Made by a program: the position numbers and the translations under genes
The notes under the pieces: generated by a model
Databases searched by the model: none
The model's input: only the letters and a program-made list of their open reading frames with translations
What the model was told of the DNA's origin: nothing
Assembly (NCBI RefSeq): GCF_018139625.1
Contig: NZ_JAGSOH010000019.1
Coordinates: forward strand, 1-64,000
Origin: Actinospica acidithermotolerans
Lineage (GTDB): Bacteria > Actinomycetota > Actinomycetes > Streptomycetales > Catenulisporaceae
Direction of reading: 5' to 3'
DNA length: 64,000 bases
Part shown: piece by piece, positions 42,509-64,000 of the stretch
Numbering within the stretch: the stretch's first letter is position 1
Layout of the letters: the number at the start of each line of letters is the position of its first letter

Positions 42509-42566
42509 GCGGGTGGGTCCTTTCTCGTCAGCATCGGGGAGAAGGGCGCAAGCTTCGCGACACCAT

Positions 42567-42578
42567 TTGAACGTTTCA
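42567..42578. promoter_or_regulatory. LacI-type operator before GH78 rhamnosidase
   Basis: TTGAACGTTTCA, an imperfect version of the TGAAACGTTTCA pattern of LacI-family sugar regulators, 58 bp ahead of the GH78 start. Confidence 0.55.
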
Positions 42579-42741
42579 GTCCGAGGCCGAAAAAAGTGCC
42601 TCGAAACCGAGGCGGGGCAGTGCGATCGAGTCGTGCGAGGGCGCGGTCCAGTCGGCGGCCGTGTGCTTGACACACGCGCACGGCGCGGATTTTGCAAGCA
42701 GCGAGCGGTGTCTCGATGCTGCGGGCCCGCCGGATCCGGCG

Positions 42742-43596: not shown

Positions 43597-43782
43597 ATGA
43601 CCGCACCCCGTACGATGCGCCAGTTCATGGACATGACGAAGGGCCGGGCGCTGCAGATCAGGGGCAGGATCACCGGCAGGCGGCGGACCGAGGTTCGCGG
43701 CGAGCTGAAGCAGGCCCGCGCCGAGTCCCGCGCCTCCGCCCACCGACTCGCACGGAGGCTACGCCACGTAGCACACTGGTGA
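43597..43782 (+). CDS. CsbD-like small basic protein
   Basis: 61 aa with GAGGAGG upstream. The core MTKGRALQIRGRITGRRRTEVRGELKQARAE follows the CsbD spacing of conserved Gly/Lys (KxKxxxGxxTGdxxlexeGxxxQakG). CsbD proteins are abundant general-stress proteins of unknown mechanism. More basic and arginine-rich than usual. It is followed at once by a near-perfect hairpin terminator, so it is its own transcription unit. Confidence 0.6.
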   Translation: MTAPRTMRQFMDMTKGRALQIRGRITGRRRTEVRGELKQARAESRASAHRLARRLRHVAHW

Positions 43783-43790
43783 CAGGGAGC

Positions 43791-43821
43791 GGTCGCCCGC
43801 CGGTGATACCGGCGGGCGACC
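43791..43821 (+). terminator. Terminator after CsbD-like gene
   Basis: Perfect 14-bp stem GGTCGCCCGCCGGT / ACCGGCGGGCGACC with a GAT loop, 8 nt after the stop. Confidence 0.8.
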
Positions 43822-43916
43822 GGGGTGGAACAGACGCTACGACTGAGGCGAAAGCGCGGATCTGGCAGATGCACAGGGAGGGCGGGCTCGGCGCGGAACG
43901 GGTGGAGGCGGGGCTG

Positions 43917-48439: not shown

Positions 48440-49422
48440 ATCGTCGGCTCCTCGCGGTCGTCGCGGTGGTCGGGGTGCGCGCCGTCCGCGCGGCCGTCGC
48501 GGACGGTGATCTGCTCGGGTTCCAGACCGAGGCGCACGCGGTCGCGCAGCTCCAGGGCGTCGATGTACTCGGCGGGCAGCTGGATGCGGCCGGCGCGGTC
48601 GAGGAGGGCGAACTCCTCGGCCTTGGCGCGGTCGCCGAAGGCGGTACGGAGCACCTCGCTGCTGGTGCGCCCGTCGCGGATCTGGACGGTGCGGGGCACC
48701 TGACCGGACACGTTCTCGTCGTGGGTGACGACGAGTACCGCGACGCCGAGTTCGTCGTTGGCGGTGCGCAGGGCCTGGAAGACGGTGTCGGCGGACGCCG
48801 TGTCCAGCTCGCCGGTGGGCTCGTCGGCCAGGACGACCTTGGGGCGGTTGGCCAGGGCCACGCCGATGGCCACGCGCTGCTGTTCGCCGCCGGAGAGGCT
48901 GTTCGGCTTCCGGTCGGCGCAGTAGCCGATGTCCAGGAGGTCCAGCAGTTCCGCGGCGCGCTTGCGGCGCTGGGAGCGGCTGACTCCGGCCAGGCGCAGG
49001 GGGGTCTCGACGTTCTCGCGGGCGTCGAGGTACGGCAGCAGGTTGCGGCCGGTCTGCTGCCAGATGAAGCCGACGGTCTCGCGGCGGTAGCGCAGGCGCT
49101 CGCGGCCCTTCATGGTCAGCAGGTCGTGGTCGGCGACCCGGGCCCGGCCCGCCGTCGGGCGGTCGAGGCCGGACAGGATGTTGAGCAGGGTCGACTTGCC
49201 GGAGCCGGAGGCCCCGACGATCGCGGTCAGCTCGCCGGGGCGGATCACCAGGTCCAGGCCCTGCAGCGCCTGCACTTCGACGCCGTCGGCCGCGTAGACG
49301 CGGACCAGCCGGTCGCACAGGATCAGCGCGTCGGCGCCGTAGCCCGCGCGCGTGCGGGCCTCGGTCTCGGCCTCGCGCTCCAGGCTCGCCAGGTCGGCGG
49401 CGGGCGTCTGCGCCTCGGTCAT
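48436..49422 (-). CDS. ABC exporter ATPase with C-terminal AbrB-like domain
   Basis: 328 aa. The ATPase is as in MacB/LolD (Walker A GASGSGKSTLLNILSGL, signature SLSGGEQQR, Walker B KVVLADEPTGELD, switch VVTHDENV), extended at both ends. The tail (about residues 270-310, FALLDRAGRIQLPAEYIDALELRDRVRLGLE) has the swapped-hairpin pattern of SpoVT/AbrB DNA-binding domains. In transporter ATPases this may be a dimerisation element rather than a DNA binder. Overlaps the permease upstream and the ATPase downstream by 4 nt each. Confidence 0.9.
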   Translation of the reverse strand: MTEAQTPAADLASLEREAETEARTRAGYGADALILCDRLVRVYAADGVEVQALQGLDLVIRPGELTAIVGASGSGKSTLLNILSGLDRPTAGRARVADHDLLTMKGRERLRYRRETVGFIWQQTGRNLLPYLDARENVETPLRLAGVSRSQRRKRAAELLDLLDIGYCADRKPNSLSGGEQQRVAIGVALANRPKVVLADEPTGELDTASADTVFQALRTANDELGVAVLVVTHDENVSGQVPRTVQIRDGRTSSEVLRTAFGDRAKAEEFALLDRAGRIQLPAEYIDALELRDRVRLGLEPEQITVRDGRADGAHPDHRDDREEPTI

Positions 49423-52094
49423 GCGTCCTCTCCCATCCTCAGCTGCGCGGGGACGTTGCGCCGGCGGACGATCGCGGCCTGCAGCAGCACGCCGACGCCG
49501 GTCAGGACCAGCGCGGCGGCCACGGTCAGCAGCGGGGTCACGGCGTCGAGCCGCAGCCCGCTCTCGGTCGCCAGTCCGGTGAACACGGTCAGGTTCAGTG
49601 CGCTGCCGAAGACCGCGGGCAGCGTCAGCGCGGCCAGCAGGCCGCCGAGCGCGGTGGTCGCGGCCAGCGGCGCGGTCTCGGCCAGGGCGATGCCGCGCGC
49701 CTGCCGCGGGCTCAGGCCCAGTGTGCCGAGCAGCGTCAGCCGGCGGGCGCGCGGGGCCGCGGTCAGGGCCAGCGCGAGCAGGATTCCGCAGATCCCGAAG
49801 CAGCCGGCCGCCGCCAGGCCGAGCGCGTATCCGAACTCGGCGAGGCCTTCCAGCGGCAGGTGCGTGAGCTTGTCCAGGGCGACGGCGCGGTACGAGACGT
49901 GGCTCTCGCCGGGCACCGTGCCGGTCAGCGCGGCGCTCACCCCCGCCGTGTTGATTCCGCTGCCGGACAGCAGGATCTCGGACACCAGCCAGTACTGCGG
50001 GTACGCGGCGACGGCCCAGTCCGGGACGAGCAGGAACGGCTCGTCCGGGCCGTACGCGGGCCGGACGGGACTCTGGGCCTGCACCGCGACGACGCGCACC
50101 TCGAATGCGGGGGCGGCGCCGGGGGACAGCTCGAATTCCGAGCCGAGCCGGTAGCCGCTGTCCGCGGAGACGACGACGGGGACCGGCCCCGATTCGCGCT
50201 GTGCCGGTAGCGCGTCTGCGAACGGCCAGGGGGAATCGGCGGAGACCTCCGTGTACGAGCTCGGATCCACCGCGTAGACCGCGGCGATGTTCGTGCCGGT
50301 CAGCGATTGCTGGGCGACGGCGGTGGCGTGCGTGACGCCGGGGACCTTCTCCAGCGCCGCGACCGCCTTCGCCGCGGCTGCCGGGGACACCCCCGTTCCC
50401 AGCGCGACCGACGCGTCGGTGCCGGTCTGGAGCCAGGACTCCTCGGACCGCCCCGATTCGACGTTCCGGTACGCCAGGCCGCCGAGTGCCGCGAGCGTGA
50501 GCGCGAGGACGATGGCGAACGTGGGCAGCGCGAGGCTCAGGGAGGAGCGCACGGCCCCGGTGAGGCCCAGGAACGCCGTGGCGCCGTTGCGCCGCCGGGC
50601 GGCCCGGGCAGCCGGAGTCAGCACGAGTGGGTAGCAGCGGACGGCGATGGCGGTGGCGACGGCCGCCACCAGGATCGGCGTGAGCGAGCCGAGCGTGTTC
50701 GAGCCGGCGCCCGTACCCGAGCCCGTGCCTGCCGCCGAACCGCCGAGGCCGGTCTGGCGCAGCAGCGCGACCGCGCCGGCGGCGAGCAGCACGAGTACGA
50801 GTTCGAGGACGCGCCGCCTGGCCTTGGGACGCCGGCGGACCGGGTCCGTGTTCTCGGCGCGCGATTGAGCGGCGCCTCGGTGATCGAGGACGGCGAGCAG
50901 CGGCGGTCCGCCGAGCACGACGAGGCAGACGGCGCCGAAGAGGTACCCGGACTGCGCGGTCGTGGAGCCGATCAGCGTTTCCGCGGCGATCCCGGCCGCG
51001 GCGAGCGCGAGGGCGGTCGGCGGGCCGAGCTCGCCGAGGACCTGGAACGCGAGCTGCGGCAGAGACTGGCCGCGGGCCCGCAGCAGCGTGAAATCCGTGC
51101 GACGACGGTCGACCAGCAGCCGCGCGCACAGCAGGACGGTGGCCGAACCGACCGTCGCCGCGCCTGTCAGGATCAGTCCCAGCACGGACTCGACCGCCGA
51201 ACGCTCGGCCTCGAAGCCGGCGATGGTCGTGGCGGGTCCGGCGGTGATCTGGAGGTTGAGTTCCGTGGCCACGGTCCCGGAGGCGAACGCGGTCATCTGG
51301 GCTTGCAGCGCCGCGGTCTCCTGCGCCGTGTACCGGCTGGTGTCCAGCGGGACGCCGTAGACGGAGATGACCGCGTCCGGGGTCCCGTTGGTGTTCACGA
51401 CCGAACGCAGTGCGGACAGCTCGCCCTCCCCGATGAGGGCGCCGGTCGACCAGAGGATGTTTCCGCCCGGCTCCACAACCTGGGAGGGCGCGGCCAGCTC
51501 CGCGTCGTAGTTCCAGAAGGAGGACGACGGATCGGTCGGATCGACGATTCCGGTGACCCGGAACCCGTACGCGATCCCCTCGATATCGAGGGTGTCGATC
51601 ACACTGCCGACCCGCGCGCCGTAGAACTTCGCGCTCGCGGCGGTGAGAGCGACGTCGAAGACTTCGCGGCCGTCGACGACGTTGACGCCCTCGGGCAGCG
51701 ATCCGGTCAGCAGCCGCTCGTGCGAGCCGAGCTGAGCCCGGTACTCGAGCTCGATCGTCGCGGAGTACGCATCGGTGCGCACTCCGAGCCCCTTGGCGAG
51801 GCGGGCGCCGGCCCAGGCCTGACCCGTCAGCGGATTCAGCTCGGCCGGAACGCCGTACGCGAAGGCGTTCAGCGTGCTGGTCAGCCTGGCGGTGCTCGGC
51901 GGGGCGTCCCCCTGTGCCGTGATCGCCCGGTTGACCGAACCGGTCGCGTCGAGACTCTGCTGAAGCGAGCTCGTGAGCTGCCGCTCGACCAGGCCCGGGA
52001 CGCCCGCCGCGAACAGCGCCGTCAGGAAGCTGAGGACGATCAGCAGCAGGACGCCGGGATAGCGCCGTGCGGTGAAGACGTGCGGCCGGCTCAT
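49419..52094 (-). CDS. FtsX-like ABC permease B
   Basis: 891 aa. N-terminal anchor helix (GVLLLIVLSFLTALFAAGVPGLVE), a long extracytoplasmic domain, a central helix group (about residues 310-480), a second extracytoplasmic domain and C-terminal helices with the FtsX-type RARRLTLLGTLGLSPRQARGIALAE and ALVLTGVGVLLQAAIVRRR. This is the duplicated MacB-superfamily layout. Overlaps neighbours on both sides by ATGA. Together with permease A it should form a heterodimeric exporter or envelope-remodelling machine. Confidence 0.88.
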   Translation of the reverse strand: MSRPHVFTARRYPGVLLLIVLSFLTALFAAGVPGLVERQLTSSLQQSLDATGSVNRAITAQGDAPPSTARLTSTLNAFAYGVPAELNPLTGQAWAGARLAKGLGVRTDAYSATIELEYRAQLGSHERLLTGSLPEGVNVVDGREVFDVALTAASAKFYGARVGSVIDTLDIEGIAYGFRVTGIVDPTDPSSSFWNYDAELAAPSQVVEPGGNILWSTGALIGEGELSALRSVVNTNGTPDAVISVYGVPLDTSRYTAQETAALQAQMTAFASGTVATELNLQITAGPATTIAGFEAERSAVESVLGLILTGAATVGSATVLLCARLLVDRRRTDFTLLRARGQSLPQLAFQVLGELGPPTALALAAAGIAAETLIGSTTAQSGYLFGAVCLVVLGGPPLLAVLDHRGAAQSRAENTDPVRRRPKARRRVLELVLVLLAAGAVALLRQTGLGGSAAGTGSGTGAGSNTLGSLTPILVAAVATAIAVRCYPLVLTPAARAARRRNGATAFLGLTGAVRSSLSLALPTFAIVLALTLAALGGLAYRNVESGRSEESWLQTGTDASVALGTGVSPAAAAKAVAALEKVPGVTHATAVAQQSLTGTNIAAVYAVDPSSYTEVSADSPWPFADALPAQRESGPVPVVVSADSGYRLGSEFELSPGAAPAFEVRVVAVQAQSPVRPAYGPDEPFLLVPDWAVAAYPQYWLVSEILLSGSGINTAGVSAALTGTVPGESHVSYRAVALDKLTHLPLEGLAEFGYALGLAAAGCFGICGILLALALTAAPRARRLTLLGTLGLSPRQARGIALAETAPLAATTALGGLLAALTLPAVFGSALNLTVFTGLATESGLRLDAVTPLLTVAAALVLTGVGVLLQAAIVRRRNVPAQLRMGEDA

Positions 52095-54769
52095 CGGCCC
52101 GCCCCCTCACGGAGCACGGCAGCCGATTCGCGGCGACGGGCTCCGGCGAGCACGAAGGTGAGCAGCGGCACGGCGAGCAGCGCCGCCACACCGACCAGAA
52201 CCTGCGTCCACGGCGTCAGCACCGTCACCGCGGGCTGCGGCTTGGAGGCGCTCGCGGTCAACGTGGCCACGGGGATCACCACCCTTCCGAGGAGCAGCCC
52301 GAGCGCGACGCCGGCCAGCGCTCCGGGACCGGCGAGCAGCATCTGTTCGAGGCAGAGGGTGCCTGTCCGCCCGCCCCGGGAGAACCCGAGCGCGTCGAGA
52401 AGCGCGAACTCGGCCGACCGCTCCGCGCGCGTGCTGAGGACGCTGACGATCAGGCCGCACAGGGCCAGCAGCGTCGTCGCGATGGCCACGGCGAGCAGCG
52501 CACGCAGCGATTCCTCCGTCAGCGGCGCTGAGCGCAGTTGGCCCTGGACCTGCGAGCGGAAGGTGACGACGGCGCCGGCGGGCAGCCCGCGCGGCGTGTC
52601 GGTGGACGAATCGCCGAGCCACACCTCGTTCGGCGCGAGATTCACCGCCGCTTCGCCGACGACCAAGCCGCCGCCCGGGGTCGAGATCGACGGGAAGCCG
52701 GACACGATCGCCACGATCCGGACCGTGATCGTGCCCGAACCGACGGGCACCGACGTGAGATCGCCGACGCCGAGACCGAGCGTGTGCGCGAGCGTCGAGG
52801 TGGCGACGGCCGGAACCTGGCCGCTCGCGCCGGCCTTGCCGGAGACCTCGTTCATCAGGGTGCTGAGCGGCACGGACGAGAGGTCGGAACGCAGCTGCAC
52901 GGTGCGCGCGGCGCTGGCCGGATCGACGGCCAGCAGCGTGGTCAGCAGTGCGCCGCTGTCGGGGACGAAGGTCGAGCGGTGGAGCGGGCTCACCTCGTGC
53001 ACGCCCGGCGACGCGGCGAGCGCGGCGAGGTCGGACGACGTGAAGCCGGCCCCGGTCACGCGCGCGTCCGCGTCGGCGCCGACGGTGAAGGCGGCCTGAT
53101 CCGCCGCGGAGCGCTCGGCGCTGGCGTACTCGCTCAGCGAGAGCACGCCGGTGGCGACGGCCAGCATCGTGAGCAGCACCGGGCCGGCGAGCTTCAGCGG
53201 CCTGCGGCCGGTCTGCCAGAACGCCAGCGGCACGGCCAGCGTCCGGCTGCGCCGCGTCAGCCGGTCGCCGAGCCGCGCGAGGAGCGGCAGCAGCCGCAGC
53301 GCGAGGGTCGCGCCGGCCGCGAGGGCGAGCGCGGGCGCGGCGATCGCGATCGGGTCGTAGGTCGAGTTGCCCGACTGGTCGGTGCCGACGATCGAGTTCG
53401 AGGTGAGCAGTTGCCAGCAGGCGAAGCCGGCCAGCGCGAGCAGGGCGAAGTCGAAGCCCGCCCGGCCGGCGGCGGTGAACGCGGCCTGCCTGCTCTGCCG
53501 CGCGCGCAGCGCCAGCGGCGAGACCGCCGAGGTGAAGGCCGGCGCCAGGATCACCGCGACGGCCGCGAGCGCGCAGCCGATCACCCCGGCCCAGACGGCC
53601 GTCGGGACGGCGGCGTGCGGCAGCGACGCGCTCGCGCCGCCGCCCAAGCGGTCGATCGCCCTCGCCAACGGTCCGGCGGCAAACGGCGCGGCGACGACCG
53701 CGGGCGCGATGAGCAGCATGGATTCGACGGTGCGCAACCGGATCAGCTGCGACCCGGTGCCGCCGCGTGCCCAGAGCAGCGCCGCTTCCGTCTCCCGCGC
53801 CTCGGACAGCAGCCGCACGACGATGAAGAGGGCTGCGAGCGCCACGACGAGCAGTTCGAGCAGCCCGGCGTACACGAGCGACTGCGCGACCTGCGCGGCC
53901 GGCGCGAGGCTCGCGAGCAGTTCCGGCAGTTCGGTGGAGGCCCCGGGGTTGCCGAGGTCGGAGTCCGTGCCGAAGGCGGAGATCAGCGACTTCAGGGCGG
54001 CGGCGTGCGCGGCGAGCCCGGACGCGCTGATCGCCTGCGTGTCGGGGACGGCCTCCCACTCCATCTGCTGGGCGGAGAGGGTCCCGCCCGCGAGGAACGC
54101 CGGGTCGGTGAAGAAGGGGCCGACCGTCGTGGAGCCGCTGCTCTGCTGGCTTCCGGCCCCCGCCAGCGGGTCCAGCCCCCAGTACGCGCCGGAGGCGTCG
54201 ATCGGCTCGAACACGCCGGTGACGAGGACGGTCACCGCGGAGTCGTCGTCGGTCAGGACCCTGATGCGGCTGCCCGGCGCGACGCCGAGCACAGACGCGG
54301 CGGCGCGGTTGAGCGCGACCGGCACTTCGGCATTGACCGATTCGCCGTGGCTCGGCCACGAACCGGCGACGAGCGTGCCGTGCGACCTGAGATCCTGCGG
54401 CGCGAGAAGCGCCGCCGCCTTGCCTGCCTTCGCCGCCGAGCCCGTCAGCGAGAGGTCCAGCTCAGGGGCCTCATACACCGTCACCTTCGCGCCGCCGAGC
54501 GCGCCGCTCACGTCGCCGCGTATCTCGGATGCGGCCTGGTCGGCGGGAACCGCGGGCATCGAACCCGTGAGCGCGATCGATGTGCCGCTCGCGCTGCGCA
54601 GCGCATCGCGTACCGCGGCGTTTCCGGCCTGGCTGCTGTACATGATCAGCGCTGCGGCGAACGCCGTGGTCAGCACCACTGTCGCGATCACGGCCGCCAA
54701 CACGACGCGATGGACACCCATCCGGCGCAGTGCCACCGGCACCCGCGCGCGACGCGGCTGCAACCCCAT
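52091..54769 (-). CDS. FtsX-like ABC permease A
   Basis: 892 aa, nearly the same length and layout as permease B: N-terminal helix (VVLAAVIATVVLTTAFAAALIMY), extracytoplasmic domain, helix group with RLLSEARETEAALLWARGGTGSQLIRLRTVE, second outer domain, and C-terminal FtsX helices with RSAEFALLDALGFSRGGRTG. First gene of the operon; GGGTGAG precedes the ATG. The 299-bp space upstream holds a hairpin and a MITE. Substrate unknown; such systems export peptides, lipids or antibiotics. Confidence 0.88.
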   Translation of the reverse strand: MGLQPRRARVPVALRRMGVHRVVLAAVIATVVLTTAFAAALIMYSSQAGNAAVRDALRSASGTSIALTGSMPAVPADQAASEIRGDVSGALGGAKVTVYEAPELDLSLTGSAAKAGKAAALLAPQDLRSHGTLVAGSWPSHGESVNAEVPVALNRAAASVLGVAPGSRIRVLTDDDSAVTVLVTGVFEPIDASGAYWGLDPLAGAGSQQSSGSTTVGPFFTDPAFLAGGTLSAQQMEWEAVPDTQAISASGLAAHAAALKSLISAFGTDSDLGNPGASTELPELLASLAPAAQVAQSLVYAGLLELLVVALAALFIVVRLLSEARETEAALLWARGGTGSQLIRLRTVESMLLIAPAVVAAPFAAGPLARAIDRLGGGASASLPHAAVPTAVWAGVIGCALAAVAVILAPAFTSAVSPLALRARQSRQAAFTAAGRAGFDFALLALAGFACWQLLTSNSIVGTDQSGNSTYDPIAIAAPALALAAGATLALRLLPLLARLGDRLTRRSRTLAVPLAFWQTGRRPLKLAGPVLLTMLAVATGVLSLSEYASAERSAADQAAFTVGADADARVTGAGFTSSDLAALAASPGVHEVSPLHRSTFVPDSGALLTTLLAVDPASAARTVQLRSDLSSVPLSTLMNEVSGKAGASGQVPAVATSTLAHTLGLGVGDLTSVPVGSGTITVRIVAIVSGFPSISTPGGGLVVGEAAVNLAPNEVWLGDSSTDTPRGLPAGAVVTFRSQVQGQLRSAPLTEESLRALLAVAIATTLLALCGLIVSVLSTRAERSAEFALLDALGFSRGGRTGTLCLEQMLLAGPGALAGVALGLLLGRVVIPVATLTASASKPQPAVTVLTPWTQVLVGVAALLAVPLLTFVLAGARRRESAAVLREGAGR

Positions 54770-54903: not shown

Positions 54904-55072
54904 CTAGGCCGTGTCTTCAAACTATCGCCGGGTCCGCGACGCCTGCCACGCACGCTCGCGGCGTTGCAGGGGCGGTTGCAGACGACCGAGTATGCGCCCG
55001 CCCCTGCGCCTTGCGAGCGCACGCGTCAGACGCCGCGGCCTGATCCGACGCAAGTTTGAAGACACGGCCTAG
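54904..55072. mobile_element. 161-bp MITE with 4-bp CTAG target duplication
   Basis: Element 54908-55068 has perfect 16-bp terminal inverted repeats (GCCGTGTCTTCAAACT at the left, its complement at the right), flanked on both sides by CTAG. Size, ends and YTAR-type target match non-autonomous derivatives of IS5-family elements. It encodes no protein. The right CTAG provides the stop codon of the giant gene; because CTAG is duplicated by insertion, the pre-insertion gene ended with the same stop. Confidence 0.88.
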
Positions 55073-58000
55073 GCGCCGTTTCCGTTCTGGTTACCGCCGT
55101 CGCCGTTTTTCGCCGCCTCCTGCTGCGCGGCCACGATCTTCGCGACGTACCCGGCGTTGAGGGTGTCGGCGTGCGAGAGGAGGTCGTTGACGAGGAAGTC
55201 GGTGAGCATCTTCTCGCCGAATTGGAGGGTGATGTCGGCGAAGCCGCCCGAGTGGAACCAGCGGCCGGACAGGCCCACGTGGCCCAGCGTCTTGACGGCG
55301 CCGACGGTCAGGCCGCCGACGAGGCTTCCGGCCATGGCCCGGCCCGCCGCGTCCCAGAGGGCGTCGCCGCTCAGGACCGTGCCCTCCTTGCCGACGCCGA
55401 GGGTCGAGCCGGTGATGAGGGTGGCGAAGAAGCTGCCGAACGCCGGGACGAGCGTGCCGCCGACGAAGTAGTCGAAGGTGCCGGAGCGCCAGCGGGTCGG
55501 GTTCTCGTTGCCCGCCCACTCGTTGTCCCAGTGCTTGTCGTTGTTGTACGGCTGGCGGTTCCAGTCCTTGCCGCCGTCGATGTTCCGCAGGCCGTCGCGG
55601 AAGTCCTTCAGCCAGGTCTCCGTCAGCACGCCGTAGCCGGCCTTGAAGCCGCTGCGGACGGCGGCGCCCGCGAAGAAGCCGCCGACCTGGCCGGGCGTGA
55701 AGTCCCAGCCCTCGGTGGCGCCGGTGATGATGATGTTCGCCACGACGTCGATCGTGAAGTCCTGGAGGAAGTCGAACACCGACTTCTGGCCGATCTTCGT
55801 CCACTTGCCGCGCAGCTCGCCGACCGCGCCGTCGCTCCGGGTGAACTGCACCCGGTTGGGCTCGCGCAGCATCCGGTTCCAGCCGCGGAACTCGTTGAGC
55901 GCCGGAACCAGGCCCTTGACCTCGCGCTCCAGGCCGACCTGCGTCCACTGGCCGAAGGTGCCGCGCTCCATGATCGCGCCGGAGGTGCCGCGGTAGCGGA
56001 TCAGATCGCCGTTCAGGTCGGTCATCCGCCACTGCTTCTGGAAGCTCTCCTTCTCGATGAAGTACACGCGGTCGCCGCCGGGGTGCGTCTCGGTGATCGC
56101 GTCGCGCTGCCGCCAGACGCTGCCGAAGTCGTACTCCTTCCACACGTTCATGCCGTGCGTGCCCTGGTCGCCGTAGATGCGGACCTTGCCGCCGATCGAC
56201 TCGCGCACCGTCAGGCGGGTGCCGTCCGGCTGCACCCGGACGTCCCGCCAGTCCGCCGTCTTCGGGCTCCTGGCGTCCTGGGTCAGCGCGTGGAAGTTGC
56301 CGTTCGAGTCCTTCCATTCCCGCACGGCCCGGCTGGCGTTGTCCATCTCGCCCTTGGCGTTGAACTTCGCGGACTCCCAGGTGCCGTTGGGCTCGCGCCA
56401 CGACCGCAGCGACGAGCCCTTGTTCAGCGCGCGGTAGTCGCGGATCTGCAGGAAGCGGCCGTCGTTCCGCTCGAAGTCGGCGAAGGAGTCGTCCCAGGAG
56501 CCCTTGCCGCCGTTGCGGTACGAGATGCGCACGCCGTCGTTGCCCAGGCCGTCGTCCCAGCTCCAGCGGCCGGTGCGCGGGTTGCCGCGGCCGACGATGT
56601 CGCCCGCGTCCATGCCGCCGAAGTGGTCGTTGCGCTCGATGAGCTGGCCCATCGTGTTGCGGGTGATCGACGGCATGTTGTCGTGCGGGCCGACCCCGTG
56701 CGGCTGGGTCGCGTCGAACTGCGGCCTGGCGTCGGAGGTGAAGTGCACGACGTCGCCCTCGTCCGTCGTGTACCTGGCCACGCGCTCGATTCCGGCGGGG
56801 TCGGTGAACCGGTCGGCCCACGTCTTGTTGTTGAAGAAGCTGCGGGTGCCGGACTGCACGACCGTGCTGCCGTTCATCTCCCGCCAGTGCAGCGGCGGCC
56901 GGCCGGCCGGGTTGTTCAGGCCGGCGGGGTACTGGTCCCAGCTGCGGCCGTCGGCGGTCTTGCCGATCTCGATCTTGTTGCCGTTGTCCAGCTTGATCGT
57001 GCTGCGGACGAGCTTGCCGCCGTCGGTGAAGTCGAAGTTCGATCCGTCCGGGGTCAGCACCCGCACGCCGTGCCCGGCCCGCGCCCCGGCCGCGTCCTTC
57101 TCGACCCAGCTGAAGACCTGGAAGCGCGAGTCGCCGGTGAAGAATCCGCGGTTCGGGAAGTCCACGGTGTCGTACTTCGAGGTGTGCCACTTCCACAGGA
57201 AGTCCGGGATGCGCTGCTCGGAGTACCGGGTGAACTCGAGCGTGTGGTTGTTGGCGATCGTCTCCAGGCTGCCGGTGTCCTTGCCCTGCTGCGAGATCTC
57301 CTTGAACGAGGTCTTCACCCCGAAGCCGTTGACGGCGTCGCCCGAGATGCCGTGTTCCCGGTAGTGGCCGGCGTGGGCGACGAAGTTGAAGGCGCTCCAG
57401 TGCTCCTGGGCCGGCCGGAACGCGGCGCCGTCGCGGAAGGTGTCCTTCCAGCCGAAGGCCCCGGAGCCCCACGGCGTCCTGGCCCGGTTGCCGCTCAGCT
57501 TCAGCGCGCCGTCCTTGTCGAACCGGGTCCAGGTGAACGAGCCGTCCGGCATCTTCTCGCCGCGCACCAGGCCGCCGTCGATGCCGGTGCGGTACTGCCG
57601 GATCGTCGCGCCCCAGCTGTTGACATCCTTGGCGTCGACCCCCGCGTCGTCGTTCGCGAAGCGCCGGAAGCCGTTGTCGGTCAGGTGGCCCGCGTCGTCC
57701 CAGCTGGTCCACTGGCGCCGGCCGTTCGGGAACTTGAGCACCTCGAGCTCCTGGCCGATCGCCAGCCGCTCGCGGCCGAACAGCGGCGTCTTGTCGGCGC
57801 CGGTGAGCAGCAGCGTGCCGTTCTTCTGGAGCGTGGCGCTGCCCGAGCTGTTGTACGCCTTCGGCAGTCCCGCGTCCCGGGCGCCGGCGTCGGTACGGGT
57901 CCAGCGGCCCGTCCAGGTGCCGTCCGCCCCCATCCGGAATTCCACGTCGAAGCGGTCCGGCGTCAGGCCGCCCTTCGCGTTCCGGATGCCGATGCGCGCG

Positions 58001-61000
58001 CCGATGAGACGGTTGCCCAGGTTGAACGTCCGGGTCTCGCCGAGGTGGGCGGCGGCTGTGTCGGTGAGGATGACGCTGTTGCCGTCGGCGCTGCGGGTGA
58101 GGGTGAACCGCGTCGAGACCGCGTTGCTGCCGTCGCGGACCTGGAGCGTCGGGTGGTTGTTCGCGTCGCGGTTGAGGTAGTCCGTGTTCAGCTGCAGTCC
58201 GCTGGAGTCCTGAAGGTGGTCCTGCCGCGACTCGATCCTGCCGAGGTTCTGGGTGAACTCCGCATAGTCGCCCTCGGTGAGGCCCACCCGGGTGTCGGTG
58301 AGCCGGACCACGTTCGCCCGGGTCGTGCTCTGCGCGAAGTGCGGGACGACGGCGTCGGTGTTGTCCCGGACGGTGACCGTCGGCCGGCCGTCGGCGCCGA
58401 GGTTGAGGTGGTCCTCGTGGATGTGCAGGTTGCCGAAGTCCTGCAGTTCGGTGCGCCGGTAGTGCATCGCGCCAGTCGCGCCGTCGAACTCGACGTGAGA
58501 GCCGCGGGTGGAGAAGGGGTGGATATCGGTGACGTGGAAGTGCCCGTTGGCGGCCCGCGCGCCGCGGAAGTTACCGACCACCGCGTTGGTGTTCGAGTCG
58601 CGGATGGTGATGGCCGGGTTGCCGGCGCCGTCGGGGTTGAGGTGGTCCTCGACGAGGTGCCGGTCGTTGAAGTCCCCGAGGTTGAAGCGCTGGGTCCGGA
58701 TGTTCCCGGTCAGGCCGTCGAACTCCGTATAGGCGTCGTGCGTGTGGCCCAGGCGGGTGTCCGTGACCATGTAGTGCGTGACGCCGAAGCGGTTGACGTC
58801 GAAGTCGTGCGAGACGCTGCCGTCCGCGTTGCGGATCGTCGTCGTCGGGAATCCGCCCGGTGTGAGGTTGACGTGGTCCTCGTGGATGTAGCGGCCGCCG
58901 AAGTTCTCCACGTTGAGCTGCTGGTAGTGCATCGCTCCGGTGGCGCTGTCGAACTCTGCCACCGAGCCGTGAGCGTGTCCGTTGCCGATGTTGGTGACGA
59001 CGAAGTCGCCGTTGTGCTCGTCGACCTGGAAGTCGGGCCGTCCGCTGCCGTCGGCGTTGTGCACGCTGATCGTCGGCTCGCCGTGGACGTCGAGGTTGCC
59101 GTGGTCCTCGAAGACGTGCAGGCCGCCGAAGTCCTCGAGGTTGGCGCGCCGGGCCAGGATGCTGCCGCTCAGGCCGTCGAACTCGGCCGTCGAGCCGTTG
59201 CGGTAGGTGTGGCCGATGTCGGTGACGACCAGGTTCCCGGCGGCGTTGCGGCCCGCCTGCAGGTCCGCCGACACGGTGCCGTCGGCGGCGCGGACGGTGG
59301 TCGCCGGATCGCCGTGGACGTCGGGGTTGAGGTGGTCCTCGTGGACGTGCAGGCCGCCGAAGGACTCGAGGTTGGTGCGCCGGGTGATGAGGGCGCCGCT
59401 GAGGCCGTCGAACTGCGCTCCGGCCCCGCGCATGTAGGTGTCGCTGGTGTCGGTGAGCACGAAGTTCCCGGCGGGGTCGCGCTCGGCCCGGAAGCCTGCG
59501 ACCACGGTGCCGTCGTCGGCGCGGACCGTGATCGTCTGCTCGCCGGTGCGGACGTCAGGGGTGAGGTGGTCCTCGTGGATGTGCATCCCGTCGAAGGACT
59601 CGAGGTTGGTGCGCCGGGTGATGATGTCCCCGCTGAGGCCGTCGAACTCGGCCGTGGAGCCGTTCGAGTGCGTGTGGCCGACGTCCGTGACGACGAGGTT
59701 CCCGGCCGGGTTCCGCTCGGCCTGGAAGTCAGTCAGGACCGTGTCGTCGTGCGCGCGGACGGTGATCGTCGGCTCGTTGCGCGGGTCGAGGTTGATGTGG
59801 TCCTCGTGGACCTGCATGCCGTGCGACTGGGCCAGGTTCGTGCGCCGGACCAGGATCCCTCCGGTCACGCCGTCGAACTCCGACGCGGCGCCGTGCGCGT
59901 GCGTGTTGCTGACGTCGGTGACGATCAGGCGCCCGTCGCCGGTCCGCTGGATCTCGAAGCCGCCGATCGGCAGGCCGTCCTCGTTGCGGACGGACATCGT
60001 CGGCGCGCCGGTGTTCGGGTCGAGGGTGAGGCGGTCCTCGTGGACGCGCAGGCCGCCGAAGTCCTGGAGGTTCGTCTCCCTGGCCCGCACCGAGCCGGTG
60101 GTGCCGTCGAACTCGGTGAAGTTGCCCTCCTCGTGGGTGTTGCCGGTGTCGGTGACGGTGAAGTGGCCGTTCTCGTCGCGGATGACGAGGAAGCCGGCCA
60201 TCGCGAAGTTCTCGTCGTTGCGGATCGTCGTCGTCGCGCCGCCGGTGTTCGGGTCCGCGTGGACGTGGTCTTCGTGGATGTGCAGCCCGTTGAAGTCCTG
60301 GAGGTTGGTCCGCTGGGTGAGCACGTGCCCGGTGACGCCGCTGAACTCGGTGGAGGCGCCGTTGCGGTAGTGGCCGGGCGCGATCTCGGTGACCGTGAAG
60401 TGGCCGTCGAGGTTCTGGGTGATCTGCCGTCCGCCGATCGCGTTGCCCGCGTCGTCGACGAGAGTGTGCGTCTCGCCGTTCGGGCCTGCCGTGTGATCGG
60501 TGCGGATGTGGACGTTCGTCAGGTCGAGGGTGCCGTGGTCGCGTGTCGTGAGCTGGCTGAAGCGGAGGTCGTTGGCCCCGCCGAAAGCGAGTGTGTGGAC
60601 GCCGTCCTCGCTGGTCAGGGTGAATCCGGCGTGTGCGCCGTCGTGCTCGAAGTTCCAGCGGACGCCGGGGATGTCGCGGAAGGTCGCGCTGCCGTCGCCG
60701 TAATTCACCCGCAGGGTGCCGAAGTCGCCGCCGTACTGCGACGTGTGCAGGTCGGCACGGGTCAGCACCGCGTGGTCGACCCCGGTGGAGACCTCGACGA
60801 TGTCGCCGTTGTGCGAGGTGACCGTGATCGTGTTGCCGTTGATCTCGGCGTGGGTCGGCGGGACGTCGGCACCGTCGTGCGTGGTGATCGACATGGTGTG
60901 GGCCTGCGGGTCGTGTATGTCGACCGTGAGATCGCCGATGCCGTGGCCGTCCGCGTGCCGTAGCGGCATTCCGTAGCCGGCCATGTGGCCGCCGGCGTCG

Positions 61001-63999
61001 TAGCCCATCCAGACGTCGCCGTTGTCGGTGAGGTCCAGCCGGAAGCCGCCGGTGCCGTCCTGCGCCGGATGGAAGGAGAACGCGTCGGTCGTGCCGTCGC
61101 GGAAGAAGGCGTGGGCGAGGTTGTTCTCGTGGTCGAGCAGCACGCCCGTCGTCTCGTTGCCGAGGTGGTCGAACAGCTGCCTGGGCTCGATGGTGAGCCT
61201 GCCCGCGAAGTCGAACTGCCACATGCGCCAGTCGTTCGCCGCGCCGATGGTGATGTTGCCGTTCGCCGAGTGCTCGACGTCGAGGCCTGTCAGGTGCTCG
61301 TCCGCGGTGCGCAGATCGGCCAGGCCGCCCGCGGTGTGGTCGACCGTCACGGTCCCGAATTGCTGGCCGTGCACGTCGACGAGCACGCGCTCGGAGGCGA
61401 TGAGCGTGCCGTCGTGGCTGAACTCGCGGAACCCGTTGTTGTCGAACGAGTCGATGCGGATTCCGCCGTGCGCGAGGTCGTCGGTGAGGGTGCCGTGGAA
61501 CAGCGTCTCGCCGTTGTGCACGTTGACGACCTCGCCGAACTCCTGGCGGTCGGTGCCGAAGGAGATCACCAGCTGGTGGTCCTGGCCGAGGGCGCGGGTC
61601 GCGACCGTGACTTCGCCGGTGTCCTCGTGGACGTGCAGCGGAACGTCGGTGTCCTTCATGCCGCCGAGCAGCCGCGGCCGCTCCTTCAGCGAATCCAGGA
61701 CGGCGCCGCGGTCCTGCAGCGTCAGGTCGAGGGCGCTCGTGCGCACGTCGTGCAGCTTCGCGCTCGCCTCGGCGAAGCCCTTGGCAGCGTTCTGCAGGTT
61801 GTGGACGGACTCCGCCTGCGCGTTCGTCTGCGGGGCCTTGCCCTTGAAGGCCGGACCGGCCTCACCCACCTTCGGGTCGGCTCCGTGGAACTGCAGGTCG
61901 TGGTCGGCCTTCGCCTGGATGAACAGGTTCTGGGCCTGCTTGAAGTCGGTCCAGGCGACGGCCAGCTTCTCGCCGTTGGGGTCGATCAGGCCGGGCTTTC
62001 CCGCGAGGTCGGGTTCGGAGAACTCGGTGCCGCGCGAGCCCGCGGAGTGCGCGGCGCCCTCGTCGACGCCGGTGCTCGAGACCGCCGGGATCGAGCTCGA
62101 GTCCGTCGCCGGCTCGATGATGTCGTGCTTGGTCCCGAACTGCCCCTCGCTGATGTTCACCCGGATCCCCGAGTCGTTCGCGTGGACGGGGATCTCCGGG
62201 TTCGCCTGCAGGTTCCTGATCTCCGGCGGGATGGCGCCGCGCGAGTCCTCGCCGAGCCGGCCGACGTCCAGCTGAGGGGCGGTCAGCCGCGGGGTGCCGG
62301 TCGAGGCGTTCAGGTGCACGGCGGTGGCGCTGTCGTTCGCCGCGAGGTGCTGCAGGGCGTTGACGTCCGGATTGGCCAGGTGCAGCGCCTCGCCGGACAT
62401 GTTCACGTTCAGTTCCGTGTGCGCGTGCGTGCCGATGTTGACGTCCACGTTGGCGACGTTCGCCGTGAGGTTCACGTGCGCCGTGTCCACGTTCGTCACC
62501 TCGACGTGGCCCGCGGAGATCGACTTGCCGTCGATCTTCAGGCCGGAGTCGGTCTGGGTGACCGGGAGCCCGTGCATGTCGGCGACGTTGATCTGCGTGT
62601 GCGCGATGGCCGAGAGGTTGGGCAGCTCCTGCGCGGTGGGCATCTTCGTGACCGCGTTCGAGGCCAGGTCCACGTTGTGCAGGTCAGAGGTCTGCAGGTT
62701 GTTGATGTGCAGCGAGGGGATGTTGATGTGCTGCAGGTTGCCGGTCATGTGCACCGAGCTCGAGCCCAGGTTCGGCGCGCTGGTTTCATGCAGGATCGGC
62801 ATGTTCAGGTTGCCGTCGTGCAGACCGGAGACGTTGACGTCCGTGGTGTGGATCACCGGCAGGTTCAGGTTGTCGGCGTGCATCGCCGGGACGTTGATGT
62901 CAGTCGTGTGGATCGTCGGCACGCTCAGGTTCTCGCCGTGCATTCCGGCGACGTTGATGTCCGCGGTGTGCAATGTCGGCACACTGAGTTCGCCCGAGCG
63001 CAGTCCGGCGATGTTCATGTCCCCGGTGTGCATCCCGGCCACGTTGATGTTCGCGGCGTGCAGGTTCGGGATGCTCATGTCGCCGCTGCGCACCGACGAG
63101 ATGCTCAGGTTGTCGGCGTGCATCGAGGGGATGGACACCTCGGCCGAGTGCAGCGTCGGCACGCTGATGTGCGAGCTGTTCATGTCGATGTTCGCCGGCA
63201 GCTTGTCCTCGTGGACGGTCACGAAGGACAGGTCGTTCATCTTCGTGATGACGGTGCCGTTGCCGATGTTGTTGAGTTCCTTGGGGAACCGCAGGTCGGG
63301 GATCTCCAGCTTGTTCAGGCCGAAGTTGGTGTGCGGCATGTGCGTGCTGATCGTCCCCACGCTCAGCGCGTCGTGCGTGAACCCGGCGGCGAGGTTGCCC
63401 ATCGAGATCCGCGGCGCGGAGATGTGCCCGTCCAGCGTCGCCAGGCGGAAGTCCGTGTTCAGATTCGGCAGCGAGGCCTCGAGGCCGTGGCCGATGTTGA
63501 TGTCGATGGCGCTGGTCTTCGGCACGTCGAGGTAGCCGAAGCCGGCGAAGTGGAACTCGCCCGTCTTCACGCCGCCGAGCGCGAGCTTGCTGAGGTCGAG
63601 CAGGTTGGTCGCCGGGGAGGCGGTGATGCCGAGGCCGCGCTCCAGGAAGCCGAGCCGGAACGCGGACATCAGGCCCAGCTTCTCCACCTCGATCGCGTCG
63701 ATCGGCAGGATCAGGCTCAGGAAGCTGCCGGTCCGCAGGCTGGTGAAGATCTTCAGGCCCCCGGCGACGAACAGCTCGCCGAGCTTGGCGGCGAACGTGG
63801 TGCCCGCGGTGATCAGCGTGGTCGGCAGGTCCTTGAGCCCGTTGAGCACCCAGACTCCGCCCTTGAGGACGAAGTTGCCCATCTTCGTGAGCGTCTCGAT
63901 GGACAGCAGGTCCGTGAACTTCGTGTTCACGAGCAGGTCCATGAAGTCGGACAGGCCCGCGCGGATGGAGACGAAGCCGGTCTTGGCGAACGACGCCAT
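55069..63999 (-). CDS. Giant repeat protein (2976 aa), polymorphic-toxin/surface-shaft-like
   Basis: 2976 aa from ATG 63999; only one base of the window lies upstream, so the true start may be further on. Regions: 1-190, amphipathic and hydrophobic helices, no signal peptide; about 270-415, about 14 copies of a 10-residue unit like PTLHTADINV / PSMHADNLSI (beta-solenoid expected); 670-780, charged helices; about 1165-2000, about 11 units of about 78 residues (LHVHEDHLN, TVRAADGT, NLVVTD, AEFDGLSG, RRTNLE); 2000-2740, WDxxG/DG-rich units reminiscent of RHS/WG repeats (WTSWDDAGHL, FTWTRFDKDGAL); 2740-2976, two glycine-rich helical stretches (GGFFAGAAVRSGFKAGYG, AMAGSLVGGLTVGAVKTLG) and a Gly/Asn tail. 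No catalytic toxin motif seen. Gene length and even codon use show it is intact. Confidence 0.85.
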   Translation of the reverse strand: MASFAKTGFVSIRAGLSDFMDLLVNTKFTDLLSIETLTKMGNFVLKGGVWVLNGLKDLPTTLITAGTTFAAKLGELFVAGGLKIFTSLRTGSFLSLILPIDAIEVEKLGLMSAFRLGFLERGLGITASPATNLLDLSKLALGGVKTGEFHFAGFGYLDVPKTSAIDINIGHGLEASLPNLNTDFRLATLDGHISAPRISMGNLAAGFTHDALSVGTISTHMPHTNFGLNKLEIPDLRFPKELNNIGNGTVITKMNDLSFVTVHEDKLPANIDMNSSHISVPTLHSAEVSIPSMHADNLSISSVRSGDMSIPNLHAANINVAGMHTGDMNIAGLRSGELSVPTLHTADINVAGMHGENLSVPTIHTTDINVPAMHADNLNLPVIHTTDVNVSGLHDGNLNMPILHETSAPNLGSSSVHMTGNLQHINIPSLHINNLQTSDLHNVDLASNAVTKMPTAQELPNLSAIAHTQINVADMHGLPVTQTDSGLKIDGKSISAGHVEVTNVDTAHVNLTANVANVDVNIGTHAHTELNVNMSGEALHLANPDVNALQHLAANDSATAVHLNASTGTPRLTAPQLDVGRLGEDSRGAIPPEIRNLQANPEIPVHANDSGIRVNISEGQFGTKHDIIEPATDSSSIPAVSSTGVDEGAAHSAGSRGTEFSEPDLAGKPGLIDPNGEKLAVAWTDFKQAQNLFIQAKADHDLQFHGADPKVGEAGPAFKGKAPQTNAQAESVHNLQNAAKGFAEASAKLHDVRTSALDLTLQDRGAVLDSLKERPRLLGGMKDTDVPLHVHEDTGEVTVATRALGQDHQLVISFGTDRQEFGEVVNVHNGETLFHGTLTDDLAHGGIRIDSFDNNGFREFSHDGTLIASERVLVDVHGQQFGTVTVDHTAGGLADLRTADEHLTGLDVEHSANGNITIGAANDWRMWQFDFAGRLTIEPRQLFDHLGNETTGVLLDHENNLAHAFFRDGTTDAFSFHPAQDGTGGFRLDLTDNGDVWMGYDAGGHMAGYGMPLRHADGHGIGDLTVDIHDPQAHTMSITTHDGADVPPTHAEINGNTITVTSHNGDIVEVSTGVDHAVLTRADLHTSQYGGDFGTLRVNYGDGSATFRDIPGVRWNFEHDGAHAGFTLTSEDGVHTLAFGGANDLRFSQLTTRDHGTLDLTNVHIRTDHTAGPNGETHTLVDDAGNAIGGRQITQNLDGHFTVTEIAPGHYRNGASTEFSGVTGHVLTQRTNLQDFNGLHIHEDHVHADPNTGGATTTIRNDENFAMAGFLVIRDENGHFTVTDTGNTHEEGNFTEFDGTTGSVRARETNLQDFGGLRVHEDRLTLDPNTGAPTMSVRNEDGLPIGGFEIQRTGDGRLIVTDVSNTHAHGAASEFDGVTGGILVRRTNLAQSHGMQVHEDHINLDPRNEPTITVRAHDDTVLTDFQAERNPAGNLVVTDVGHTHSNGSTAEFDGLSGDIITRRTNLESFDGMHIHEDHLTPDVRTGEQTITVRADDGTVVAGFRAERDPAGNFVLTDTSDTYMRGAGAQFDGLSGALITRRTNLESFGGLHVHEDHLNPDVHGDPATTVRAADGTVSADLQAGRNAAGNLVVTDIGHTYRNGSTAEFDGLSGSILARRANLEDFGGLHVFEDHGNLDVHGEPTISVHNADGSGRPDFQVDEHNGDFVVTNIGNGHAHGSVAEFDSATGAMHYQQLNVENFGGRYIHEDHVNLTPGGFPTTTIRNADGSVSHDFDVNRFGVTHYMVTDTRLGHTHDAYTEFDGLTGNIRTQRFNLGDFNDRHLVEDHLNPDGAGNPAITIRDSNTNAVVGNFRGARAANGHFHVTDIHPFSTRGSHVEFDGATGAMHYRRTELQDFGNLHIHEDHLNLGADGRPTVTVRDNTDAVVPHFAQSTTRANVVRLTDTRVGLTEGDYAEFTQNLGRIESRQDHLQDSSGLQLNTDYLNRDANNHPTLQVRDGSNAVSTRFTLTRSADGNSVILTDTAAAHLGETRTFNLGNRLIGARIGIRNAKGGLTPDRFDVEFRMGADGTWTGRWTRTDAGARDAGLPKAYNSSGSATLQKNGTLLLTGADKTPLFGRERLAIGQELEVLKFPNGRRQWTSWDDAGHLTDNGFRRFANDDAGVDAKDVNSWGATIRQYRTGIDGGLVRGEKMPDGSFTWTRFDKDGALKLSGNRARTPWGSGAFGWKDTFRDGAAFRPAQEHWSAFNFVAHAGHYREHGISGDAVNGFGVKTSFKEISQQGKDTGSLETIANNHTLEFTRYSEQRIPDFLWKWHTSKYDTVDFPNRGFFTGDSRFQVFSWVEKDAAGARAGHGVRVLTPDGSNFDFTDGGKLVRSTIKLDNGNKIEIGKTADGRSWDQYPAGLNNPAGRPPLHWREMNGSTVVQSGTRSFFNNKTWADRFTDPAGIERVARYTTDEGDVVHFTSDARPQFDATQPHGVGPHDNMPSITRNTMGQLIERNDHFGGMDAGDIVGRGNPRTGRWSWDDGLGNDGVRISYRNGGKGSWDDSFADFERNDGRFLQIRDYRALNKGSSLRSWREPNGTWESAKFNAKGEMDNASRAVREWKDSNGNFHALTQDARSPKTADWRDVRVQPDGTRLTVRESIGGKVRIYGDQGTHGMNVWKEYDFGSVWRQRDAITETHPGGDRVYFIEKESFQKQWRMTDLNGDLIRYRGTSGAIMERGTFGQWTQVGLEREVKGLVPALNEFRGWNRMLREPNRVQFTRSDGAVGELRGKWTKIGQKSVFDFLQDFTIDVVANIIITGATEGWDFTPGQVGGFFAGAAVRSGFKAGYGVLTETWLKDFRDGLRNIDGGKDWNRQPYNNDKHWDNEWAGNENPTRWRSGTFDYFVGGTLVPAFGSFFATLITGSTLGVGKEGTVLSGDALWDAAGRAMAGSLVGGLTVGAVKTLGHVGLSGRWFHSGGFADITLQFGEKMLTDFLVNDLLSHADTLNAGYVAKIVAAQQEAAKNGDGGNQNGNGA
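57990..60540 (-). repeat. About eleven tandem 234-bp coding repeats
   Basis: Direct repeats inside the giant gene. Each encodes about 78 residues with HEDH, TVTD or VVTD, EFDG and RTNL(E/Q) landmarks. Similarity is clear at protein level and partly at DNA level, for example the recurrent GGTCCTCGTGGA block. It is not CRISPR: there are no spacers. Confidence 0.85.
62760..63190 (-). repeat. About fourteen 30-bp coding repeats
   Basis: Each 30-bp unit encodes a decapeptide with a central His and alternating hydrophobics (IPSMHADNLS, VPTLHTADIN). The periodicity suits a beta-solenoid shaft. Confidence 0.8.
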
Positions 64000-64000
64000 G

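What the first reader, a model, noticed from the sequence alone, without database searches (positions are those of the whole stretch)
55069..63999. 2976-residue modular repeat protein of unknown class
Three distinct repeat fields (10-residue solenoid, about 78-residue EDH/EFDG units, WDG-type units) plus helical N-terminus and glycine-rich C-terminus form an architecture I cannot assign. It looks like the shaft and shell of a contact-dependent or polymorphic toxin but has no toxin domain and no immunity gene after it. The glycine-rich helices at 2740-2976 could insert in membranes. The downstream parallel neighbour is an ABC exporter operon.
Basis: partly seen in the sequence, partly recalled or inferred. 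Interest (0 to 1): 0.72.

Follow-up and report, generated by a model that had tools for sequence, protein, structure and literature searches.

The report
Giant cargo of undescribed type VII system
The "2,976-residue repeat protein" is the cut-off end of a 3,218-residue, cysteine-free giant protein that several families of soil actinomycetes encode beside a dedicated, apparently undescribed type VII-like secretion motor and its small helper proteins, so it is most likely that motor's exported cargo.

Summary
The ORF and its repeats are real, but the window edge cut off 242 N-terminal residues. The full gene (contig 55069-64725, minus strand) encodes 3,218 residues with no cysteine. The missing end is a helical domain with an LxG motif that matches T7SS_signal/LXG/WXG100 models below cut-off: a type VII secretion-type N-terminus.

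Homologues of the C-terminal 1,200 residues occur in 19 of 395 sampled Actinomycetes genomes. Most sit in a conserved cassette: a distinct EccC/EssC-type ATPase clade, one or two WXG100-like proteins, a ~300-residue partner carrying [FWY]xxxD in 27/27 cases, the giant, a beta-helix/EccA-type AAA protein and an ECF sigma factor. I could not match this cassette to published T7SSa-T7SSj.

The same N-terminus also carries an inositol-kinase-like or a RelA/SpoT-like cargo, which argues for substrate rather than machine. The 10- and 78-residue repeats are lineage expansions; the conserved body is predicted all-beta (local resemblance to Rhs/teneurin shells) and ends in a helical domain.

The C-terminus is conserved, not polymorphic, and no immunity gene follows. 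The ABC exporter downstream is unrelated. Function after export is unknown; a fixed Rhs-like effector is my leading guess.

The parts
55069..64000 (-). Giant gene, the part inside the window (residues 243-3218 of 3218). The gene starts outside, at contig 64725: residues 1-242 (LXG-like / T7SS_signal-like helical domain 1-150 with LxG motif, hydrophobic segment 163-235) lie at contig 64001-64725
   Evidence: codon score consistent with coding; N-terminus:
62626..63192 (-). 10-residue (decapeptide) repeat field, residues ~512-700
   Evidence: autocorrelation; weak pentapeptide-repeat match E 0.001, below cut-off; about half absent in the A. durhamensis orthologue (alignment)
58021..60528 (-). 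78-residue EDH/EFDG array, 11 units, residues 1400-2235
   Evidence: HMM of the unit; 6 units in A. durhamensis, 0-2 in others
55927..57951 (-). Conserved all-beta 'WDG' body, residues 2259-2933
   Evidence: alignments; model all beta-strand; Foldseek top hits Rhs/teneurin/Tc-C, E 1e-15 to 1e-8 but TM-score ~0.1
55105..55905 (-). C-terminal all-helical glycine-rich domain, residues 2941-3207
   Evidence: model; mean pairwise identity 41-43% over 22 homologues
55462..55611 (-). Most conserved stretch (GGKDWNRxPYNxDKxWDNEWAGNENPxRWRSG), residues 3039-3088
   Evidence: 63% mean pairwise identity over 22 homologues

Best explanation
It is the dedicated exported giant substrate of a type VII-like secretion cassette. 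The helical LXG-like N-terminus binds the WXG100-like and WXG300 partners, whose [FWY]xxxD motif together with the LxG motif forms a composite export signal. An EccC/EssC-type ATPase pushes the cysteine-free chain across the membrane; the EccA-type AAA protein probably handles or strips the partners. Outside, the chain folds into a long beta-hairpin body, lengthened by lineage-specific decapeptide and 78-residue repeats, that carries a conserved helical terminal domain. Shown by sequence: gene extent, motifs, synteny, ATPase clade, domain swapping. Inferred from relatives: partner binding and export. Speculative: that the body is an Rhs-like shell and that the helical end is a fixed, non-polymorphic effector.
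For: T7SS_signal/LXG/WXG100 matches in homologous N-termini and LxG-type motif. Cassette conserved around the giant in Catenulisporaceae, Frankia and relatives, Streptomyces, Embleya; giant and WXG300 in the same genomes (16 shared, 0.8 expected). ATPase homology to EccC/YukB (4nh0 E 2e-109, 9qks 4e-91), one clade, SH-aLRT 100. WXG100-like partners match EsxA best in PDB (E 0.0036). [FWY]xxxD in 27/27 WXG300; FxxxD of Lap1 is needed for LXG export (PMC9600955). Cysteine 0.053% in giants against 0.80% in other genes. Same N-terminus with other cargo: IPK, RelA_SpoT-like; same C-terminal module with another N-terminus in Frankia.
Against: No Pfam match is over its cut-off for the N-terminus or the small proteins. 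EccB, EccE and mycosin were not found in the giant loci but sit at the separate canonical locus C288; how a complete channel is formed is unknown. The Rhs-like fold rests on local 3Di similarity (TM ~0.1, pTM 0.52) and is not seen by Pfam; one of 14 members gave a weak YD-repeat match. No experiment shows export.
Confidence: 0.7

Rival explanations
1. The giant is a structural part of the secretion machine (an envelope-spanning conduit or receptor, as proposed for EsaA in T7SSb and TsdI in T7SSd), not a cargo.
For: It is inherited with the ATPase almost one to one, is not polymorphic and has no immunity gene. TsdI is likewise a large repeat protein of a T7SS (PMC11217815). One hydrophobic segment near the N-terminus.
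Against: It has a substrate-type N-terminus that also carries unrelated enzymatic cargo, and the C-terminal module also occurs on a different N-terminus. TsdI has a Sec signal and a C-terminal TM helix; no typical Sec signal is apparent here by eye (no predictor run) and the C-terminal helices are only borderline hydrophobic.
Confidence: 0.15
2. A surface or sheath fibre/adhesin of hyphae exported by T7SS: the repeats set its reach and the conserved end anchors or binds; it is not a toxin.
For: Repeat arrays change length between close relatives (11, 6, 1-2 units) while the terminal module stays conserved; single-layer beta-sheet proteins (OspA) are also among the fold hits.
Against: Sibling cargos on the same N-terminus look like enzymes that act inside cells (IPK, RelA/SpoT-like). 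This differs from the best explanation only in the role after export.
Confidence: 0.25
3. A classical polymorphic/contact-dependent toxin with a C-terminal toxin and immunity gene.
For: LXG-like N-terminus and Rhs-like beta body followed by a separate domain; Rhs effectors such as Tse5 use this plan (PMC12744356).
Against: The C-terminus is 41-63% identical across genera and families; no immunity-like gene follows; no toxin family hit.
Confidence: 0.08

Closest known systems
LXG effectors with Lap targeting factors of T7SSb (TelC/TelD, EsxX, TspA)
   Same: Helical N-terminal domain with LxG/FxG motif, small WXG100-like partners encoded beside it, FxxxD motif in a partner, EssC-type ATPase
   Different: Below the Pfam LXG cut-off; one partner is a ~300-residue protein; effector is 2.3-4 kaa with a conserved, not variable, end and no immunity gene; in Actinomycetes
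T7SSd of Olsenella/Bifidobacterium (Garrett et al. 2024, PMC11217815)
   Same: Actinomycetota; EssC-like ATPase, WXG100, a Ser/Thr kinase in some of our loci, one very large repeat protein
   Different: No TsdI-like (Sec signal, Ig domains, C-terminal TM) or TsdH seen; has instead an EccA-type beta-helix AAA, ECF sigma, WXG300 and LXG-like giant. Their supplementary data could not be searched
Canonical T7SSa/ESX (EccB-E, MycP)
   Same: EccC-like motor, EccA-like AAA domain, WXG100 proteins
   Different: Giant-linked ATPase falls below EccCa/EccCb cut-offs, and EccB/EccE/mycosin were found only at the separate C288 locus of the same genome
Rhs/teneurin/Tc-C shells (RhsA, RhsP, Tse5)
   Same: Long predicted beta-hairpin body before a terminal domain; best fold matches
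   Different: No RHS/YD family match over cut-off, no global superposition
T7SS-linked Rhs toxin of Listeria (PMC10327511)
   Same: T7SS locus with a large shell protein
   Different: An Rhs toxin by its title; paper not read in full

Membership tests
LXG effector (PF04740) | Pfam LXG model over its cut-off | tested here: not met
   22.4 bits for residues 1-158, cut-off 26.5
LXG effector (PF04740) | LxG/FxG motif in the helical N-terminal domain | tested here: met
   [LFW]xG followed by [TS]AD-type residues in nearly all giants with intact N-terminus; helical model, domain 1-150
LXG effector (PF04740) | Lap-type WXG100-like partners with FxxxD | tested here: met
   [FWY]xxxD in 27/27 WXG300; WXG100-like neighbours
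WXG100 family (PF06013) | small helical hairpin over Pfam cut-off | tested here: inconclusive
   E 0.002-0.07, below cut-off; profile best PDB hit EsxA E 0.0036
T7SSa (ESX) | ATPase over EccCa/EccCb cut-offs | tested here: not met
   413 and 321 bits against 509 and 347; own C288 EccC passes with 945/865
T7SSa (ESX) | EccB, EccE, mycosin in the same locus | tested here: not met
   Not found among the neighbours scanned with Pfam in C110/C177; present at C288. EccD not specifically tested
T7SSb | ATPase over the EssC cut-off | tested here: not met
   538 bits, cut-off 778
T7SSb | N-terminal FHA domains on EssC | tested here: inconclusive
   FHA-like by eye; no Pfam or PDB match
T7SSd | TsdI/TsdH components | tested here: inconclusive
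   None recognised among called genes; no TsdI/TsdH sequence was available for a direct search
Rhs/YD-repeat protein | RHS/YD family match | tested here: not met
   No RHS Pfam hit; YD_repeat_2x in 1 of 14 homologues, E 0.007
Rhs/YD-repeat protein | closed beta-shell fold | tested here: inconclusive
   Foldseek E 1e-15 to RhsA/Rhs core, TM ~0.1, pTM 0.52
Polymorphic toxin | variable C-terminal domain with adjacent immunity gene | tested here: not met
   Conserved C-terminus; no recurrent immunity-like gene
CdiA contact-dependent inhibition | two-partner-secretion N-terminus, CdiB/CdiI partners | tested here: not met
   No such domain or neighbour in Pfam scans

The most novel reading that the evidence does not exclude
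A further type VII secretion subtype, not among published T7SSa-T7SSj, spread over several actinomycete families and present on megaplasmids, whose signature is one dedicated, non-polymorphic giant (2.3-4 kaa) LXG-like substrate with a shell-like beta body and a conserved helical terminal domain.
Probability: 0.55. Interest if true: 0.8.

Novelty: new variant of a known kind. Interest (0 to 1): 0.68.

Why it matters
Known T7SS substrates range from ~100-residue Esx proteins to Rhs-sized toxins; a motor dedicated to a conserved, nearly cysteine-free 2.3-4 kaa protein would show what T7SS can export and what for, outside toxin warfare. The compact cassette in Streptomyces clavuligerus ATCC 27064 (a standard strain) makes this directly testable, and the swapped IPK and RelA/SpoT-like cargos point to a wider effector set in antibiotic-producing and plant-associated actinomycetes.

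Tried and rejected
ABC exporter as partner: no homologue beside other giants. Glycine-zipper toxin (EsxX/TspA/Tse5-like): no GxxxG enrichment over shuffles and only borderline hydropathy; not excluded but unsupported. Known family for the C-terminus: none in Pfam, NCBIfam or PDB sequences. Rhs membership by sequence: no. FHA domain on the ATPase: not detected. Fold search with the N-terminal model: nothing with E below 0.001, model too weak beyond residue ~150. WXG300 against PDB: nothing. Phages: no match. Papers on a T7SS of S. clavuligerus: none held. The starts of a few giants (L051, L106-L108) were mis-called by my simple gene caller. I did not use the N-terminal 242 residues of the own protein for structure prediction because they lie outside the window; the A. 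durhamensis orthologue stood in.

Full report
WHAT IS THERE. The window is contig C110:1-64000 of a 7.9 Mb draft genome in the same genus as the genome whose contigs match Actinospica durhamensis records. The minus-strand frame 55069-63999 is real but truncated by the window edge: it continues to an ATG at 64725, giving 3,218 residues. Two related genes exist in the genome: a 2,352-residue protein on C177 with homologous ends (37% identity over ~1,190 residues) and a 5,229-residue frame on C361 that shares only the N-terminal ~385 residues and ends in an inositol-polyphosphate-kinase domain (PF03770, E 1.3e-13).

REPEATS. The 10-residue field (residues ~480-700) and the 78-residue array (11 units, 1400-2235) are far beyond chance. 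They are not the essence: the closest orthologue (A. durhamensis, 60% identical) has 6 units, others 0-2, and about nine decapeptides are missing there (alignment). What is conserved is the N-terminal ~480 residues, the beta body and the helical end.

N-TERMINUS. The part outside the window reads MTRPSDWSALGLSSDPTPGDPDQV...NLSGATADALKAQ. Own-protein Pfam matches are LXG E 1.3e-4 and T7SS_signal E 3.4e-4, both below cut-off; among 12 homologues 9 match T7SS_signal (best 3.1e-6), 6 LXG, 5 WXG100. A model of the A. durhamensis orthologue is all-helical with confident helices only up to residue ~150. Residues 163-235 are the only segment over the usual hydropathy threshold. No cysteine occurs in 3,218 residues; over 21 giants cysteine is 0.053% against 0.80% in 60 other genes of the genome, a composition expected of exported proteins.

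NEIGHBOURHOOD (outside the window, contig coordinates). LamG protein 64863-65948 (+), LysM-SLT transglycosylase 66003-66908 (-), a beta-helix protein fused to an EccA/CbbX-type AAA domain 67030-69006 (-), then after an insertion an ECF sigma factor 76778-77368 (+), a ~300-residue protein (WXG300) 80319-81227 (+), a WXG100-like protein 81336-81653 (+) and a protein kinase from 81773 to the contig end at 82603; the kinase gene resumes on C375 next to an EssC-like ATPase, C375:37083-41636. On C177 the order is beta-helix-AAA, ECF sigma, membrane protein, EssC-like ATPase, WXG100-like and WXG300 (divergent), giant. The same set recurs in Catenulispora, Actinocrinis and Frankia, in Streptomyces-family and other genomes, on S. 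clavuligerus plasmid pCLA1 and in Embleya. The WXG300 profile found strong hits (E 1e-15 or better) in 17 of 395 Actinomycetes genomes and the giant's C-terminal profile in 19; 16 are shared, 0.8 expected (Fisher p 1e-24, not corrected for shared ancestry). All 16 neighbourhoods fetched from the WXG300 search held a giant, some cut by contig ends. In a second Frankia group the C-terminal module sits behind a different N-terminus, with the beta-helix-AAA and ECF sigma genes nearby in some.

MOTOR AND PARTNERS. The ATPase profile finds T. curvata EccC, B. subtilis YukB and EccC5 in the PDB. It scores below the NCBIfam cut-offs for EssC, EccCa and EccCb, whereas the same genome's C288 EccC passes EccCa/EccCb and lies with EccB, EccE and mycosin. 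In a tree of 41 sequences the giant-linked ATPases (plus one whose locus carries the RelA/SpoT-like variant) form one clade, SH-aLRT 100, separated from canonical EccC by a long branch; other actinomycete EssC-like proteins with other partners lie outside. The small proteins match WXG100 weakly, and EsxA/EsxB entries are prominent among their PDB hits, the best being EsxA (E 0.0036). All 27 WXG300 sequences carry [FWY]xxxD at one place, and the giants carry [LFW]xG. In T7SSb, FxxxD of Lap1 is required for LXG export and is modelled next to the LxG motif (PMC9600955); the same pair of motifs is described for EsxX/LapX3 (PMC12744356). I infer, not show, the same mechanism here.

BODY AND END. 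AlphaFold2 on the C-terminal 1,200 residues (14 sequences; pLDDT 68.6, pTM 0.52) gives beta hairpins to residue ~914 of the segment and helices after ~923. Foldseek's top 11 PDB hits are Rhs, teneurin and Tc-C proteins (E 1.5e-15 to 1e-8), but TM-scores are ~0.1, so only local hairpin architecture is supported. No RHS/YD family match over cut-off. The helical end contains the most conserved stretch of the module (63% mean pairwise identity), the opposite of a polymorphic toxin tip, and no recurrent immunity-like gene follows. The borderline-hydrophobic helices leave a membrane role open.

WHAT IT PROBABLY DOES. Substrate rather than machine, because the N-terminus is swapped onto other cargo (IPK, RelA/SpoT-like) and the C-terminal module onto another N-terminus. 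T7SS-linked exported alarmone synthetases are known (PMC12691689), which supports reading the N-terminus as an export domain. After export, a fixed shell-type effector or a hyphal surface fibre both fit; I lean to the former.

KNOWN OR NEW. Garrett et al. 2024 (PMC11217815) list T7SSa-j; only T7SSa and T7SSd are actinobacterial, and their described components do not match this cassette. Their supplementary data were not readable here, and papers outside the held library were not searched, so novelty of the subtype is likely, not proven.

Noticed in passing
G000:C361:6909-22598 (L027/L028): 5,229-residue frame with the giant's N-terminus, an unrelated body and a C-terminal inositol polyphosphate kinase domain, next to its own EssC-like ATPase and three WXG-like genes.
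   Followed up: partly
L145:6927-11468: 1,513-residue variant with the giant's N-terminus and a weak RelA/SpoT match (E 0.005), in a cassette with the same ATPase clade.
   Followed up: partly
L162, L163, L165/L166, L167: Second Frankia class of giants (about 3.4-5.4 kaa) with the same C-terminal module, a different N-terminus and, in several, a recurrent ~400-residue gene directly downstream.
   Followed up: partly
G338:C69, G124:C1, G212:C151: Two giants near each other in one locus.
   Followed up: no
contig C110:71960-73243, outside the window (L008:9960-11243): 427-residue protein similar to the N-terminal part of the EssC-like ATPase only, beside another beta-helix protein; possibly a remnant or a regulatory copy.
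   Followed up: partly
contig C110:66003-66908, outside the window (L008:4003-4908): LysM-SLT transglycosylase next to the giant; could open the wall for export. Not conserved beside other giants in my tables.
   Followed up: partly
window 49419-54769, minus: Two FtsX-type permease genes with ABC ATPases downstream of the giant, about 300 bp gap, no terminator found; unrelated to the cassette.
   Followed up: yes
G000:C386 and C377 (L083, L084): Two further EssC-like ATPases (36-37% identical at best to the giant-linked clade) with other partners.
   Followed up: partly
window 39119-42697 and 43779-45671: By eye, a large secreted glycosidase-like protein (rhamnosidase-like) and a Ser/Thr protein kinase.
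   Followed up: no
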